Of a stretch of 44,794 bases of DNA, positions 22,813 to 30,313 are shown piece by piece. Each line of letters starts with the position of its first letter. The stretch's first letter is position 1. The stretch spans positions 1 to 44,794 of the forward strand of contig JAPLNM010000046.1 in the NCBI GenBank assembly GCA_026692845.1, in the 5' to 3' direction. The notes below the pieces were generated by a model. The model ran no database searches. It saw only the letters and a program-made list of their open reading frames with translations, and was not told the origin of the DNA. The translations under genes were made by a program, and so were the position numbers. Source of the DNA: Planctomycetota bacterium (GTDB taxonomy: Bacteria > Planctomycetota > Planctomycetia > Pirellulales > Pirellulaceae).

Positions 22813-22892
22813 CCGTTTCCCATGGTTCGTCGATCCTGTAAGATACGGTCCGATTTGCAAGCGGTTCCTTGGTTCTCATCCGGCGGAGTGTT

Positions 22893-24470
22893 ATGAGCGA
22901 ACTGTATCACGAGTGTGGGGTTGCTGCCGTCTACCATCTGCCATCGGCGTCCGAAAGCCCTCTGTGTGTCGGTATTGGCATGGATGCAGCCTCGACACTC
23001 ATGCCCCGAATGCTTCAGGATATCCAAAACCGAGGCCAGTTGGCAGCGGGAATGACCAGCTACAACCCCAAGCGTTCGTTGCTGCTCGAAACCCACAAGG
23101 ATATCGGCACGGTCAGCGAAGTCTTTCGCCTCTCGCATCGCGGCAAGCACGAAGCGATCATGCAGCAGCTTGTCGGCTCGGCAGCCATCGGACATGTGCG
23201 CTATGCAACCTGTGGACAAGACGATAAAAACTACGCGCAGCCCTTCGAGCGTCAGCACATCCACAAACACAAGTGGTTCAGTTTTTGTTTCAACGGCCAA
23301 TTGGCCAACTACCAAGAGCTCAAAGAAAAACTCACCCGCGAGGGGGACCACCATTTGGCTCGCGATACCGACACGGAGATCATCCTGCATGAAATCGGTC
23401 GCGAGCTTACGATCAATCCAAACCTCTCGTTGATCGATGTCTTTGCCAACGCAGCAAAGAGCTTCGATGGCGCTTATTCGCTAGCCCTCCTTACGGCCAA
23501 AGGAGAATTGCTCGTGGCCCGGGACCCACGTGGGATCAAGCCCCTTTGCTATGCGTTCGATGGTTCTTTGTTTGCCGCAGCAAGCGAAAGCGTCGCACTG
23601 CTGAATCTTGGCTTCGACCGCTCGCTGATCAAATCCGTGCAACCCGGTACCTGCATGATGATCACTCCCGAGGGGATCGAGGAACGACGATTCGTTGAGA
23701 AAATCAATCCGTCCCATTGTTTTTTCGAATGGGTTTACTTTGCCAACGTCGCCAGCACACTCGATGAGCGAAGCGTATACCTATCCCGCACTCGATTGGG
23801 CGAGGAGCTTGCTCGAATCGAACTTGCGCGGAACGAAATCACTATCGACTCCGACACGATTATCGTACCCGTCCCAGACACGAGCAAAGCTGCCGCCGAT
23901 GCGATGGCATTTCGTTTGCGAATCCCTTGCCGCGAAGGCTTGATCCGAAATCGGTATTCCGGTCGAACATTCATCGAAGGCAACCGCGCTCGCAAGGTTT
24001 CGGCTGCGATGAAATACACGCCGCTGCGAGAAGTCCTCGAAGGAAAACGCGTGATCCTCGTCGAGGATTCGATCGTGCGCTCGACAACCATGAAAGTCCT
24101 CCTCAAGCGAATCCGAGACTTGGGCGGCGCCAAAGAAATCCACGTCCGTGTCGCTTGCCCGCCGATCGTTGCTCCTTGCTTTTACGGCATCGATATGTCC
24201 ACGATCGATGAGCTCTACGCTCCGAAGTTCCTCGGAACCGACGGGTTGACCGAAGAGGCCCAAAAGCGGATGGCCGAAAATCTCGAATGCGATTCCTTAA
24301 GATACCTGCCGATCGACTCGATCGCCCGAGCGATCGAACTACCTAAAGATCATCTATGCCAAGCTTGCATCACCGGCGAATATCCAACCCCATTTGGCCA
24401 AAAGCTCTACGGCATCGCGCGAACAAACTACGTAACCGGATGCGCCGCTAAACGAACGTACGATTCCTAA
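22893..24470 (+). CDS. purF: Amidophosphoribosyltransferase
   Basis: 525 residues from ATG at 22893 (MSELYHECGVAAVYHLPSAS); the in-frame start at 22869 has no counterpart in the family. The N-terminal glutaminase nucleophile is Cys8 of ECGVAAVY, so a seven-residue propeptide must be removed, as in the B. subtilis type. Other glutaminase motifs: IGHVRYATCG and FCFNGQLANYQEL, then RDPRGIKPLCYA. The PRTase half has the PRPP loop VILVEDSIVRSTTMKVLL. Cysteines in HCFFEWVYFAN, APCFYGID and LCQACITGEYPT match the 4Fe-4S ligands of the B. subtilis enzyme. It converts PRPP and glutamine to phosphoribosylamine, the first step of purine synthesis. No purine riboswitch is visible in the 80-base leader. 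DUF1080 follows after 16 bases. Confidence 0.96.
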   Translation: MSELYHECGVAAVYHLPSASESPLCVGIGMDAASTLMPRMLQDIQNRGQLAAGMTSYNPKRSLLLETHKDIGTVSEVFRLSHRGKHEAIMQQLVGSAAIGHVRYATCGQDDKNYAQPFERQHIHKHKWFSFCFNGQLANYQELKEKLTREGDHHLARDTDTEIILHEIGRELTINPNLSLIDVFANAAKSFDGAYSLALLTAKGELLVARDPRGIKPLCYAFDGSLFAAASESVALLNLGFDRSLIKSVQPGTCMMITPEGIEERRFVEKINPSHCFFEWVYFANVASTLDERSVYLSRTRLGEELARIELARNEITIDSDTIIVPVPDTSKAAADAMAFRLRIPCREGLIRNRYSGRTFIEGNRARKVSAAMKYTPLREVLEGKRVILVEDSIVRSTTMKVLLKRIRDLGGAKEIHVRVACPPIVAPCFYGIDMSTIDELYAPKFLGTDGLTEEAQKRMAENLECDSLRYLPIDSIARAIELPKDHLCQACITGEYPTPFGQKLYGIARTNYVTGCAAKRTYDS

Positions 24471-26040: not shown

Positions 26041-27636
26041 ATGACACAACAGCCAACTTGGCCGCAGAGGGTACTCCAAGCTGCAGCGATCTACAATCTT
26101 GTTTGGGGGGCTTGGGTTGTCTTGTTCCCAAACCACTGGTTCGACCTTACCGGAATTCCCCATCCGAACTACCCTGGGATATGGCAATGCGTCGGGATGA
26201 TTGTCGGCGTTTATGGACTGGGGTATTGGTGGGCATCGCGAGACTTTGCCACGCATTGGCCGGTAATCGCGGTAGGGTTCCTGGGTAAGATTTTTGGACC
26301 GATCGGTTTTCTCCAATCGGTTCTCCAAGGTGCCCTACCGTGGAGCTGGGGTTGGATGATCTTGACGAACGATCTGATTTGGTGGTTGCCCTTTGGTGCG
26401 ATGTTGTATCTGGCATTCAAACAACATTCGGATCCGCAGCGGCAAGCCGCAGCAACAGGAAAACAAGCTGCCGAGGAATGGAGTTTAATCGAGGCCAATA
26501 CCTTGGCCCGAACAGCCCAGGGCCAGACGATTGGCCAACTCAGCGAAAAAAAAGATGTGCTGTTGGTATTCCTGCGACATGCAGGATGTACGTTCTGTCG
26601 CGAAACGCTCGATGAGCTCCGAAAGTCGCGCCAAACCTGGGAAAAGCGCGGATTGCAACCTGTCGTGGTTCACATGGGGAGCAACGAACAGGGGCTCAAG
26701 ATGATGGACCAGTACCAGCTTGAAGACTGTCCTGTGATCAGCGATCCGGACTGCCGAATCTTTCGGTCGTATCAGCTACCTCGGGGCACTTGGCGGCAAC
26801 TGTTTGGATTGAGGATCTGGATCGAGGGGTTTAAGGCAGCGATCCTCAAGGGTTATGGTTTTGGGAAGCTCGTCGGAGATGGTTTTCAGATGTCAGGGGC
26901 ATTTCTTGTTCGAGACGGTAGGATCGTCGCGGCTTATCCATCCAAGGATGCGGCCGATGGCTGTTCGTGGAAACCGGCACTCCAGGCTATGGTTCTGCTG
27001 AGCCTGACCCTTCTTGGGTTGGGTAACAAACCAGTCTTTGCCCAACCAACGCGTCCACTGCCCGATCCGCAACTCTCGGGTCCAAATCAACAGGGAGTTA
27101 ACACGATGATCGATTGCGAGATGTTGCAGATACAGCAAGGAGATCGCATCGAATTTGTGACCGGGACAAGAACCGGTGAGTTTTGGATGATCGACATCCA
27201 CAGCGAGCGCGGGATCGGCGGATTTACCCTGCGCCGGCGGGTAGAAAAATGGCCAGCTCACATGCGCGTTCGAGTGCATACGAGGGGACTTGAGCAGATC
27301 CAATTGGTTATCGGTTTGCAAACGCAGGCAGGCGCAATGACCACAACCTACTCTGGCGAGTACGGCACGACTCGATTGAAAGAGGTTTGGTCAGAGATCC
27401 AACGGCACTCCGATGCCAACGGGGAGATCAAAACAACGACGAGAGAAATGAAGTTGCCCAAGGAGTTCGGGAACACGTCTTTACGGCTGATGGATGCATC
27501 GGGGAAGGAACTCGAGAAGGTGCGGCTCCCGTTGGAGGCAGGCGAATATTTCGAGTGGACGGTACCGAACGAATGGCTCACGAAGGAGAACCCAGAGATG
27601 GTTCAAATCAAGTGGGTCGATTTCTGGAGAAACTAG
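26041..27636 (+). CDS. Four-helix membrane / peroxiredoxin-like (CxxC) / exported-domain fusion protein
   Basis: 531 residues. Residues about 10-125 hold about four hydrophobic helices (LQAAAIYNLVWGAWVVLFP; IWQCVGMIVGVYGLGYW; WPVIAVGFLGKIFGPIGFLQSVL; ILTNDLIWWLPFGAMLYLAF). Residues about 145-315 look like the AhpC/TSA_2 (SelL/PRXL2-like) thioredoxin fold: VLLVFLRHAGCTFCRETLDEL with the CxxC at 183-186, then VVVHMGS, CPVISDPDCRIFRSY and GAFLVRDGRIVAAYPSKDAAD. A hydrophobic stretch ending FAQ (about 315-335) reads like an internal signal peptide or anchor, followed by about 195 residues of an unrecognised beta-rich domain. The cysteines suggest a membrane-tethered thiol oxidoreductase. All three parts are one continuous frame. 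A start downstream of the CxxC domain cannot be ruled out. Confidence 0.83.
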   Translation: MTQQPTWPQRVLQAAAIYNLVWGAWVVLFPNHWFDLTGIPHPNYPGIWQCVGMIVGVYGLGYWWASRDFATHWPVIAVGFLGKIFGPIGFLQSVLQGALPWSWGWMILTNDLIWWLPFGAMLYLAFKQHSDPQRQAAATGKQAAEEWSLIEANTLARTAQGQTIGQLSEKKDVLLVFLRHAGCTFCRETLDELRKSRQTWEKRGLQPVVVHMGSNEQGLKMMDQYQLEDCPVISDPDCRIFRSYQLPRGTWRQLFGLRIWIEGFKAAILKGYGFGKLVGDGFQMSGAFLVRDGRIVAAYPSKDAADGCSWKPALQAMVLLSLTLLGLGNKPVFAQPTRPLPDPQLSGPNQQGVNTMIDCEMLQIQQGDRIEFVTGTRTGEFWMIDIHSERGIGGFTLRRRVEKWPAHMRVRVHTRGLEQIQLVIGLQTQAGAMTTTYSGEYGTTRLKEVWSEIQRHSDANGEIKTTTREMKLPKEFGNTSLRLMDASGKELEKVRLPLEAGEYFEWTVPNEWLTKENPEMVQIKWVDFWRN

Positions 27637-27893: not shown

Positions 27894-27903
27894 GAAGGGA
27901 AGG
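27894..27903 (+). promoter_or_regulatory. Ribosome-binding site fixing the GTG start at 27910
   Basis: GAAGGGAAGG ends six bases before GTG at 27910. This purine run favours GTG over an in-frame start at 27841 that has no such site and would add 23 residues without family similarity. Confidence 0.75.
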
Positions 27904-27909
27904 TTCAAC

Positions 27910-29148
27910 GTGAAGCCCAAGGCTGTGTTGGCTTATTGTCGCGAAAAGGGGATCAAGGCCGTCGACATCCGGTTCCCAGACGGGTTAGGGCGTTGGCGGC
28001 ACTTTACGATGCCCGTCGCGGGGCTGACGGAAAGTGTCTTCGAAACAGGCTTAGGTCACGAATCCTGCGGGTTTCAACGCGGCGCGAAAGATCATGCTCC
28101 CTGGGTCGTTATTCCGATCCCTGAGTCCAAATACATCGATCCCCTCCAAAGCCAACCGACCCTGGTCCTCATGGCCTCGATCCAGGAAGCTTGGACAGGA
28201 GAGGAAGCGTGGTTCGATGTTCGCTCGTTGGCCGGGCGGACCCTCGAAGCGTTCCGAGGATCCGGAATAGCCGACGATGTCCTTGTGGCAACCACCCTGC
28301 CCTTCAACTTGACGCATCCGTCGAATTCACTCGACGTCCCGGAGGGCTCACTGGCTGCTGCCCCCGCGTCGCAATCGCAATTCGAAGGGGGTCGATTCGA
28401 TCCAGACGCCAGTTTTCGATCCGACCTGATGCATGTGGCCGTTGATTCAGGCCTTGCAATCGATCGACACTATCGCGGTCGGCAATCCACCAGCGAATTT
28501 TCGCTTGGAGCAAGATCTCTCGTTCAAGCTTGCGATGATCAGTTGATGTTGCGGTCGTTGATGGAAACCAACGCCCAGCAGCAAGGCGTAGGAATCGGCC
28601 CAGGAGCAACGCTTTTCTCGAAGTCGGCTTGGATGTTCGCGAAAAACTCCGAACCTATCTTTGCAGGATCGCGCGCATTTGGTTTGAGCGATGTAGGTTG
28701 GTACGCGGCCGGTGGCCTGCTCAAACACGCGACGGCACTCACTGCCATCGCAGCGAGTTTTCCAACAGTTCCAGTCGCTTCCAAGCCCGATTGCCAAGTG
28801 TTGCTCTCGGATCGGAATCTCGAAAGCTTCCTTGGAGTCGAACCGCAAGCCAATGACCCTCGATACCCCTCGCTTGTCGTCCGTTCGATGCCTGCCTTGG
28901 CTTGCCCTTACCTGACACTTTCGGCCGTAGCGATGGCGATGCTCGACGGCATCATCCAAAAAATAGCGCCGGTAACCGAGATTTCGCCACGAATGAATAC
29001 ACCCGAGAGCCAAGCGGCAAATCCAATCTCAAATAGCCAGCTTGCCGAGTGCTTGGTCGTAGACTCCGGGTTCCTGATGCACGCGGAGGTCTTCTCCGAG
29101 CCATTGATCCAATCGCTCTATCAGCATCTCTCAAACACCAATCATTGA
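27910..29148 (+). CDS. Glutamine synthetase-fold protein lacking catalytic residues (pseudo-GS)
   Basis: 412 residues from GTG at 27910. The N-terminus follows the beta-grasp of type I glutamine synthetase: VLAYCREKGIKAVDIRFPDGLGRWRHFTMPV. The C-terminal half also keeps the fold pattern: FAGSRAFGLSDVGWYAAGGLLKHATALTAIA (GS: nLFaGd.y.gLSe.al.yigGilkHa.al.Ala) and PALACPYLTLSAVAMAMLDGIIQKI (GS: sANPYLAfaAmLmAGLDGI). The catalytic landmarks are gone: DGSS is HESC, the ExE metal pair is replaced in LVATTLPFN, HEVATAGQNEI is RGRQSTSEFSL, and NGSGMHVHQS is SKSAWMFAKNS. No ATP or metal site can be traced. It should not make glutamine; a scaffold, sensor or ligand-binding role is inference. An aminopeptidase gene follows after 43 bases. 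Confidence 0.85.
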   Translation: MKPKAVLAYCREKGIKAVDIRFPDGLGRWRHFTMPVAGLTESVFETGLGHESCGFQRGAKDHAPWVVIPIPESKYIDPLQSQPTLVLMASIQEAWTGEEAWFDVRSLAGRTLEAFRGSGIADDVLVATTLPFNLTHPSNSLDVPEGSLAAAPASQSQFEGGRFDPDASFRSDLMHVAVDSGLAIDRHYRGRQSTSEFSLGARSLVQACDDQLMLRSLMETNAQQQGVGIGPGATLFSKSAWMFAKNSEPIFAGSRAFGLSDVGWYAAGGLLKHATALTAIAASFPTVPVASKPDCQVLLSDRNLESFLGVEPQANDPRYPSLVVRSMPALACPYLTLSAVAMAMLDGIIQKIAPVTEISPRMNTPESQAANPISNSQLAECLVVDSGFLMHAEVFSEPLIQSLYQHLSNTNH

Positions 29149-29191: not shown

Positions 29192-30313
29192 ATGGTCACC
29201 AACAAAAAGCTTGCACCGGACTATTCCAAACGCCGCGATCGGGTCTTGCGTGGACTCAAAGCCCAGGGGGCAAAAAACCTCTTGGTAACCTCACCGCACA
29301 ACGTCAGCTACCTGACAGGTTTCACGGGCGAAGACAGTTTTCTGTGGCTCACGCCAAAAGAAGTGATTCTTTTGAGCGATGCTCGCTATGAAGAGCAAAT
29401 CCAATCGGAGGTCCAGGACGTCGAGTTGCTCATACGCCCAGCGAGTGCCACGATTATCGATGCGGCTGCAAGCGTTTTGGACACACGCCACGAGAGCGAA
29501 ATCTGGGTAGAAGCGGCAAGCACTAGCGTCGCACAATGGGAACGACTTCGCAATCGATTGCCGAATAAAACACTTGCAAGCTTTTCGGGAGCCGTCGAAC
29601 GGCTTCGGGAAATCAAGGATGCTTACGAACTGAATCTAATCCAGGATTCGATCCATATTGCGGAGCGGGCATTCAAAGCCACCACGGAGTTACTCCAGCC
29701 GGAAATGTCTGAAAAACAAATCGCAGACGACCTGGAGTTTGCGATGCGAAGGCTCGGAGCCGAATCGGCTGCATTCAAGATCATCGTTGGTGTAGGCGAG
29801 CGCAGCGCGTTGCCCCACGGACGACCGTCAAATAAATTGCTCCGCGACTCTTCCTTTGTATTGATCGATTGGGGGGCCAAGAAAAACGGTTATCTGAGCG
29901 ATTTGACAAGGATGTTTTTCACCAACAAGCCACCGACACGACTGGAGAAAATGTATCGCGCGGTTCTCCAAGCGCAAACGGATGCGATCGAAGCGATCAA
30001 GCCTGGTGTTTTGATGAGCCAGATCGATGCGGTAGCTCGCAAGGCACTCGAAAAAGCGGGACTTGAAAAACGATTCACCCACGGCTTAGGGCATTCGTTT
30101 GGCCTGGAAATCCACGAATCGGTTCGGCTGGGTAAAGGCCAAGATCGCCAGCTCGAAGCCGGAATGGTCGTGACGGTCGAACCTGGGGTCTATGTTCCCG
30201 GTTTCGGAGGGGTCCGCATCGAGGACGATATTCTGGTGACCGAATCGGGCCACCAAGTATTGACCTCTCTTGCGAAACATTGGGATGAGGTCCTCGGCGC
30301 TAGATTTCGCTGA
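29192..30313 (+). CDS. M24B metallopeptidase, Xaa-Pro aminopeptidase/dipeptidase type
   Basis: 373 residues from ATG at 29192. The creatinase-like N domain (YSKRRDRVLRGLKAQGAKNLLVTSPHNVSYLTGF) is followed by the pita-bread catalytic domain. The five metal ligands are visible: Asp226 and Asp237 (LIDWGAKKNGYLSDLTR), His301 (HGLGHSFGL), Glu330 (VTVEPGVYVPG) and Glu344 (VRIEDDILVT). Length equals that of bacterial PepP/PepQ short forms (about 360). It hydrolyses the bond after an N-terminal residue next to proline, in the cytosol. It overlaps the convergent Gfo/Idh gene by 14 bases (30300-30313). Whether it works with the upstream pseudo-GS protein is unknown; the spacing favours co-transcription. 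Confidence 0.95.
   Translation: MVTNKKLAPDYSKRRDRVLRGLKAQGAKNLLVTSPHNVSYLTGFTGEDSFLWLTPKEVILLSDARYEEQIQSEVQDVELLIRPASATIIDAAASVLDTRHESEIWVEAASTSVAQWERLRNRLPNKTLASFSGAVERLREIKDAYELNLIQDSIHIAERAFKATTELLQPEMSEKQIADDLEFAMRRLGAESAAFKIIVGVGERSALPHGRPSNKLLRDSSFVLIDWGAKKNGYLSDLTRMFFTNKPPTRLEKMYRAVLQAQTDAIEAIKPGVLMSQIDAVARKALEKAGLEKRFTHGLGHSFGLEIHESVRLGKGQDRQLEAGMVVTVEPGVYVPGFGGVRIEDDILVTESGHQVLTSLAKHWDEVLGARFR

What the first reader, a model, noticed from the sequence alone, without database searches (positions are those of the whole stretch)
27910..29148. Glutamine synthetase-fold protein with all catalytic motifs replaced
The protein keeps the N-terminal beta-grasp and the C-terminal fold segments of type I glutamine synthetase (GLLKHATALTAIA; ACPYLTLSAVAMAMLDGIIQKI) but the DGSS, ExE, HEVATAGQNEI and NGSGMHVHQS motifs read HESC, ATTLP, RGRQSTSEFSL and SKSAWMFAKNS. 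Seen: loss of motifs over intact fold. Known: these residues bind metals, ATP and glutamate. Inferred: a pseudoenzyme, perhaps a scaffold or sensor, linked with an M24 peptidase gene. I recall no described planctomycete family of this kind.
Basis: partly seen in the sequence, partly recalled or inferred. Interest (0 to 1): 0.72.

Follow-up and report, generated by a model that had tools for sequence, protein, structure and literature searches.

The report
Conserved dead glutamine synthetase in Pirellula
A genus of freshwater planctomycete bacteria keeps, under selection, a glutamine synthetase that has lost its active site, together with an equally damaged copy of the enzyme that normally regulates it, while a different glutamine synthetase probably does the chemistry.

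The parts
27910..29148 (+). pseudo-glutamine synthetase (pGS), 412 aa, GTG start; type I GS fold with catalytic motifs lost
27894..27903 (+). putative ribosome binding site GAAGGGAAGG upstream of the GTG start
   Evidence: sequence upstream of the start printed; inference
27910..27954 (+). N-terminal segment MKPKAVLAYCREKGI, nearly invariant at protein level in the genus while codons vary
28468..28470 (+). codon of H187, invariant in 24 of 24 pGS rows (36 of 39 canonical rows have Q in that column; the alignment has a two-residue gap close by)
28861..28863 (+). codon of R318, invariant in 24 of 24 pGS rows where 38 of 39 canonical rows have K
29192..30313 (+). M24 family peptidase (creatinase/prolidase type); neighbour in one clade of the genus, not a conserved pair

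Best explanation
The gene encodes a pseudo-glutamine synthetase: a descendant of type I GlnA that keeps the GS fold but should no longer bind both metals or transfer phosphate. Glutamine synthesis in this genus has probably passed to a type II GS. The old GlnA stayed under purifying selection as a non-catalytic protein. Most likely it acts as a ring or scaffold in nitrogen-status signalling, perhaps still contacting the altered, catalytically silent GlnE. Shown here: fold, residue loss, retention in the genus, low dN/dS, no detected canonical GSI, a GSII with intact motifs, and loss of the GlnE site residues. Inferred: no catalytic activity of pGS or GlnE, ring formation, a part in nitrogen sensing, and binding to GlnE.
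Against: No experiment. Nothing ties pGS to nitrogen control directly; its gene neighbours differ between clades. GlnE is also above cut-off in 19 of 25 family genomes picked for lacking GSI, where a GSI/pGS profile finds nothing (0 of those 25, which had no positive control for a far-diverged pGS). So GlnE has a role that needs no GS partner. G013 of the genus (93% complete) has GlnE but no detected pGS. GlnE and GSI decay are not strictly coupled: G032 (GSI with Tyr397F and N264F) and G041 (no GSI match) have GlnEs with all Asps intact. Rate covariation of pGS with GlnE is strong but hardly specific: partial r 0.88 given RlmN, against 0.83 for pGS with M24; each given the other three proteins, 0.59 against 0.40. 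E220, E357 and R359 persist in many copies, so ligand binding is possible. Active-site columns are not significantly less retained than other canonical invariant columns (0.19 against 0.34, p 0.087).
Confidence: 0.4

Rival explanations
1. pGS is a pseudoenzyme kept for a role unrelated to nitrogen, for example a structural or chaperone-like ring, as lengsin was recruited in the lens.
For: Fold kept and catalytic residues lost; neighbours are mostly housekeeping genes that differ by clade; a GS-related lens protein implicated in intermediate filament reorganisation is known (passages of PMC2605723); GlnE persists without any GSI elsewhere.
Against: GlnE, the former regulator, is retained and altered in every genome of the genus; AmtB lies upstream in 3 of 21 loci examined.
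Confidence: 0.35
2. pGS has a new catalytic activity with a rebuilt site, using E220, E357, R359, H187 and R318.
For: E220, E357 and R359 kept in 20, 17 and 18 of 24; H187 and R318 invariant in 24 of 24.
Against: Both metal sites lose two of three recalled ligands in 24 of 24, and the residues that are kept are not universal.
Confidence: 0.12
3. The gene is a decaying remnant with no function.
For: Fast divergence: mean identity 45% where GSII has 88%; active-site loss; not detected in G003 and G013.
Against: No internal stop in the 25 matches of the genus and dN/dS 0.07-0.17 in close pairs; N-terminus nearly invariant.
Confidence: 0.05
4. pGS and the M24 peptidase form a functional pair.
For: M24 directly downstream in 11 of 25 genomes; pGS and M24 rates covary.
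Against: In other clades the M24 orthologue lies elsewhere and other genes flank pGS.
Confidence: 0.06

Closest known systems
Type I glutamine synthetase (GlnA, TIGR00653)
   Same: Same fold over the whole length, collinear domains, nearest sequence relatives
   Different: Catalytic motifs, Tyr397 and C-terminal tail lost; 101 bits against a cut-off of 429
Lengsin (LGSN), vertebrate lens GSI-like protein
   Same: A class I GS re-engineered for another role (title of a cited paper, seen; loss of activity is recalled)
   Different: Here bacterial and genus-wide, with decay of GlnE beside it; descent from lengsin's line was not tested
GlnE, glutamine synthetase adenylyltransferase/deadenylylase
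   Same: The modifier of GlnA in canonical systems; a homologue is kept in 27 of 27 genomes of the genus
   Different: Site residues lost at the adenylylation site in 27 of 27 and at the deadenylylation site in 26 of 26 that show it
GS-TnrA, GS-GlnR peptide and archaeal GS-GlnK1 complexes
   Same: GS taking part in nitrogen signalling through protein contacts (titles of 4s0r, 7tfa, 7tf9 and 8tge)
   Different: Those GSs are active enzymes (recalled); no such contact is shown here

Membership tests
Type I glutamine synthetase (GlnA) enzyme | GS fold with beta-grasp and catalytic domains | tested here: met
Type I glutamine synthetase (GlnA) enzyme | Curated family score (TIGR00653, 429 bits) | tested here: not met
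   101 bits
Type I glutamine synthetase (GlnA) enzyme | Residues E129, E131, E212, H269, R339 | tested here: not met
   0 of 24 orthologues
Type I glutamine synthetase (GlnA) enzyme | Tyr397 adenylylation site | tested here: not met
   0 of 24 rows, four with a gap there
Type I glutamine synthetase (GlnA) enzyme | Glutamine synthesis | not testable with these tools
   needs an enzyme assay
Conserved pseudoenzyme | Orthologues share the catalytic losses | tested here: met
Conserved pseudoenzyme | Purifying selection on the protein | tested here: met
   dN/dS 0.07-0.17 in 14 pairs
Conserved pseudoenzyme | No catalytic activity and an alternative function | not testable with these tools
   inferred only
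GlnA-GlnE regulatory pair | Both partners retained together | tested here: inconclusive
   pGS in 25 of 27 and GlnE in 27 of 27 of the genus, but GlnE also in 19 of 25 genomes picked for lacking GSI
GlnA-GlnE regulatory pair | Intact AR and AT site residues in GlnE | tested here: not met
   AT DxD lost in 27 of 27; no AR site with both Asps in 26 that show it
Lengsin family | Common descent with vertebrate lengsin | not tested
   no lengsin sequence compared

The most novel reading that the evidence does not exclude
A whole enzyme-regulator pair, GlnA and its adenylyltransferase GlnE, has been turned into a catalytically silent module. Both partners lost their active sites, both stay under purifying selection across a genus, and together they act as a non-enzymatic nitrogen-status complex (reading PII or glutamine) beside a new GSII.
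Probability: 0.22. Interest if true: 0.85.

Novelty: new variant of a known kind. Interest (0 to 1): 0.62.

Why it matters
Glutamine synthetase is a central nitrogen enzyme, and its GlnE/PII control is a textbook cascade. Here the enzyme has lost its active site, its modifier has lost its own sites, and both proteins persist. Other genera of the same family show partial stages: GSI with a few losses, GSI heavily changed, GSI gone with GlnE half-lost. That gives a natural series for asking how a regulated enzyme becomes a regulator or scaffold. It also warns annotators: the Pfam model Gln-synt_C still passes its cut-off (71 against 24 bits) and would label this protein a glutamine synthetase.

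Tried and rejected
One search read minus-strand loci unoriented and gave nonsense proteins; it was redone and not used.

M24 partnership: rejected as general. Decaying gene: disfavoured by dN/dS.

Selective loss of active-site columns: retention 0.19 against 0.34 for other canonical invariant columns, p 0.087, so not significant.

Rate covariation as proof of a pGS-GlnE complex: hardly specific, because M24 correlates nearly as well. Only 16 genomes and three comparison proteins were used, and some GlnE frames were cut by contig or locus ends.

A hidden pGS in GSI-less genera: not found with profile A3 in the 25 genomes picked for lacking GSI, nor in G003 or G013; G041 and G083 matched. There was no positive control for a far-diverged pGS.

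Literature: searches showed no bacterial pseudo-GS or silent GlnE in what was listed. Only the top rows were seen (for example 15 of 113 papers, 10 of 74); some returned nothing. Only open-licence PMC papers are held. Beyond listings I saw passages of PMC12409994 and PMC2605723.

Rows dropped or weak: L111 (Roseomonas, 26%) was left out of pGS counts; G025 (partial pGS) was left out of the alignments; L012 is cut by a contig end and was left out of the tree. The 39 canonical GSI rows hold four genes twice (L028/L060, L029/L125, L030/L126, L059/L130), so 35 genes.

Changed after checking: two of the six comparison GlnEs labelled GSI in my scripts come from G032 (changed GSI) and G041 (no GSI match). 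This weakens the coupling of the two decays, so I lowered the best explanation from 0.42 to 0.40 and the novel case from 0.25 to 0.22, and raised the unrelated-role rival from 0.33 to 0.35.

Full report

Orthologues. Among 147 related genomes the protein finds an orthologue in 25 of the 27 genomes of its own genus (one, G025, partial), 35 to 81% identical outside the window's own genome, one match each. Named records show freshwater Pirellula or Planctomycetota MAGs (19 of 20 loci; the twentieth, Roseomonas, was dropped). Of six matches from outside the genus aligned, five are canonical 470-residue GlnAs and one (L032, the same gene as L117) is partly changed. In the tree 23 pGS rows are split from the GSI rows by a branch of support 100/100. 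In 24 aligned pGS rows E129, E131, E212, H269 and R339 are kept in none, Tyr397 in none (four gaps), E220 in 20, E357 in 17 and R359 in 18; the comparison set is 39 canonical rows from 35 genes. The last ~50 residues of GlnA are missing in the 23 copies not cut by a contig end. Residue numbers and metal-ligand roles are recalled. Fourteen close pairs give NG86 dN/dS of 0.07-0.17, so the protein is under selection. The first 15 residues are nearly invariant while their codons vary. Active-site columns were not lost significantly more than other canonical invariant columns: 0.19 against 0.34 retention, p 0.087.

What makes glutamine. A search for Gln-synt_C in 27 genomes of the genus detected no canonical GSI; the best score was 84.6 bits, where canonical GSIs of the family mostly score over 400. 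It found a GSII in 23 of 27; the other four genomes are 76-83% complete. The GSII of the window's genome fits the GlnII model best (376 bits, under its cut-off of 500). All 23 GSIIs keep the DGSS, ExE, NGSGMH and arginine motifs. Their mean pairwise identity is 88%, against 45% for pGS in 21 of those genomes.

GlnE. The adenylyltransferase of GSI is above cut-off in 27 of 27 genomes of the genus, but changed. The GlnE model PRK11072 scores 122 bits for the window's genome against 661 for a relative with canonical GSI. Aligned copies from all 27 genomes show the adenylylation site NYHSDLD changed to NYHSDx(S/T/N/G/P). The second Asp is lost in 27 of 27, the first kept in 27 of 27, the third changed to Lys, Arg or His in 27 of 27, and a following Arg changed to Trp in 25 of 27. 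One copy (L140) lacks the deadenylylation region; none of the other 26 has both Asps there. A review seen in passages gives G-X11-D-X-D as the motif of the SidM domain, which resembles GS-ATase, and assigns AMPylation to the C-terminal and deAMPylation to the N-terminal GlnE domain (PMC12409994). Six GlnE pairs give dN/dS 0.07-0.21. Six comparison GlnEs keep all Asps at both sites: four from genomes with canonical GSI (G043, G045, G074, G100), one from G032, whose GSI is partly changed, and one from G041, which had no GSI match.

The pairing argument and its limits. Decay of both GlnA and GlnE with retention of both suggests a silent module. Four results weaken this. First, in 25 family genomes picked because they lacked GSI, GlnE is above cut-off in 19, while a profile of pGS and GSI finds nothing in any of the 25. 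In 14 of those GlnEs the first Asp of the deadenylylation site is lost in 14 and both adenylylation Asps are kept in 12. GlnE therefore has some role without GSI. Second, G013 (93% complete) has GlnE and no detected pGS. Third, rate covariation between pGS and GlnE is high (partial r 0.88 given RlmN) but nearly matched by pGS with M24 (0.83); given the other three proteins it is 0.59 against 0.40. Fourth, G032 and G041 keep an intact GlnE without an intact GSI. PII proteins are present in 27 of 27, so a PII-reading complex remains possible.

Neighbourhood. In 21 pGS loci, M24 is downstream in 7, EF-P and PCMT are upstream in 8 (with AmtB further upstream in 3 and Ham1 downstream in 4), an ABC transporter and an AMP-binding enzyme flank it in 5, and one is cut by a contig end. 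By the coordinates, M24 directly follows pGS in 11 of 25 genomes. M24 is therefore a clade-specific neighbour.

Other decays. GSIs in several other genera are partly changed. L117 (G065) has N264H, R344G and Tyr397D; L118 (G032) and L119 (G037) lose N264 and Tyr397; L120 (G058), L121 (G078) and L122/L128 (G084, G179) lose many catalytic residues. In the tree L117 sits with canonical L028 (100/97) and L121 with L122/L128 (80/90, long branches); the others are unresolved, all apart from the pGS rows. Of four GlnEs from G058, G065, G078 and G084, none has both deadenylylation Asps (G065 has D-x-E) and two keep both adenylylation Asps.

Verdict. The pseudoenzyme is well supported. In the listings of open papers that I searched I saw no bacterial case. 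The nearest known case is lengsin (recalled; passages). The function remains inferred: most likely a non-catalytic nitrogen-status protein, with an unrelated structural role close behind.

Noticed in passing
L117, L118, L119, L120, L121, L122, L128: Other Pirellulaceae genera carry type I glutamine synthetases with partial loss of catalytic residues and of the Tyr397 adenylylation site, apparently decaying more than once.
   Followed up: partly
L212-L224, L231: Genomes picked for lacking a type I glutamine synthetase keep GlnE with a lost deadenylylation site (14 of 14) and both adenylylation Asps (12 of 14); its target there is unknown.
   Followed up: partly
GlnE of the genus, e.g. L162: The altered adenylylation site has a conserved make-up of its own (first Asp kept, third Asp changed to Lys/Arg/His in 27 of 27, an Arg changed to Trp in 25 of 27), which looks like remodelling rather than random decay.
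   Followed up: partly
L065 (G016) and L071 (G014): The Gln-synt_C match runs a few codons past the pGS stop codon (one TAG inside the match), perhaps a trace of the lost C-terminal part.
   Followed up: no
window 26041-27636: A 531-residue protein with a SelL-related redox domain (NCBIfam NF040769) inside a longer chain.
   Followed up: no
window 22869-24470: A PurF-like amidophosphoribosyltransferase that scores 331 bits, just under the curated purF cut-off of 350.
   Followed up: no
L103 1594-3156, L104 3044-4603, L107 4049-5416: An ammonium transporter gene lies a few genes upstream of the pseudo-glutamine synthetase in three loci.
   Followed up: partly
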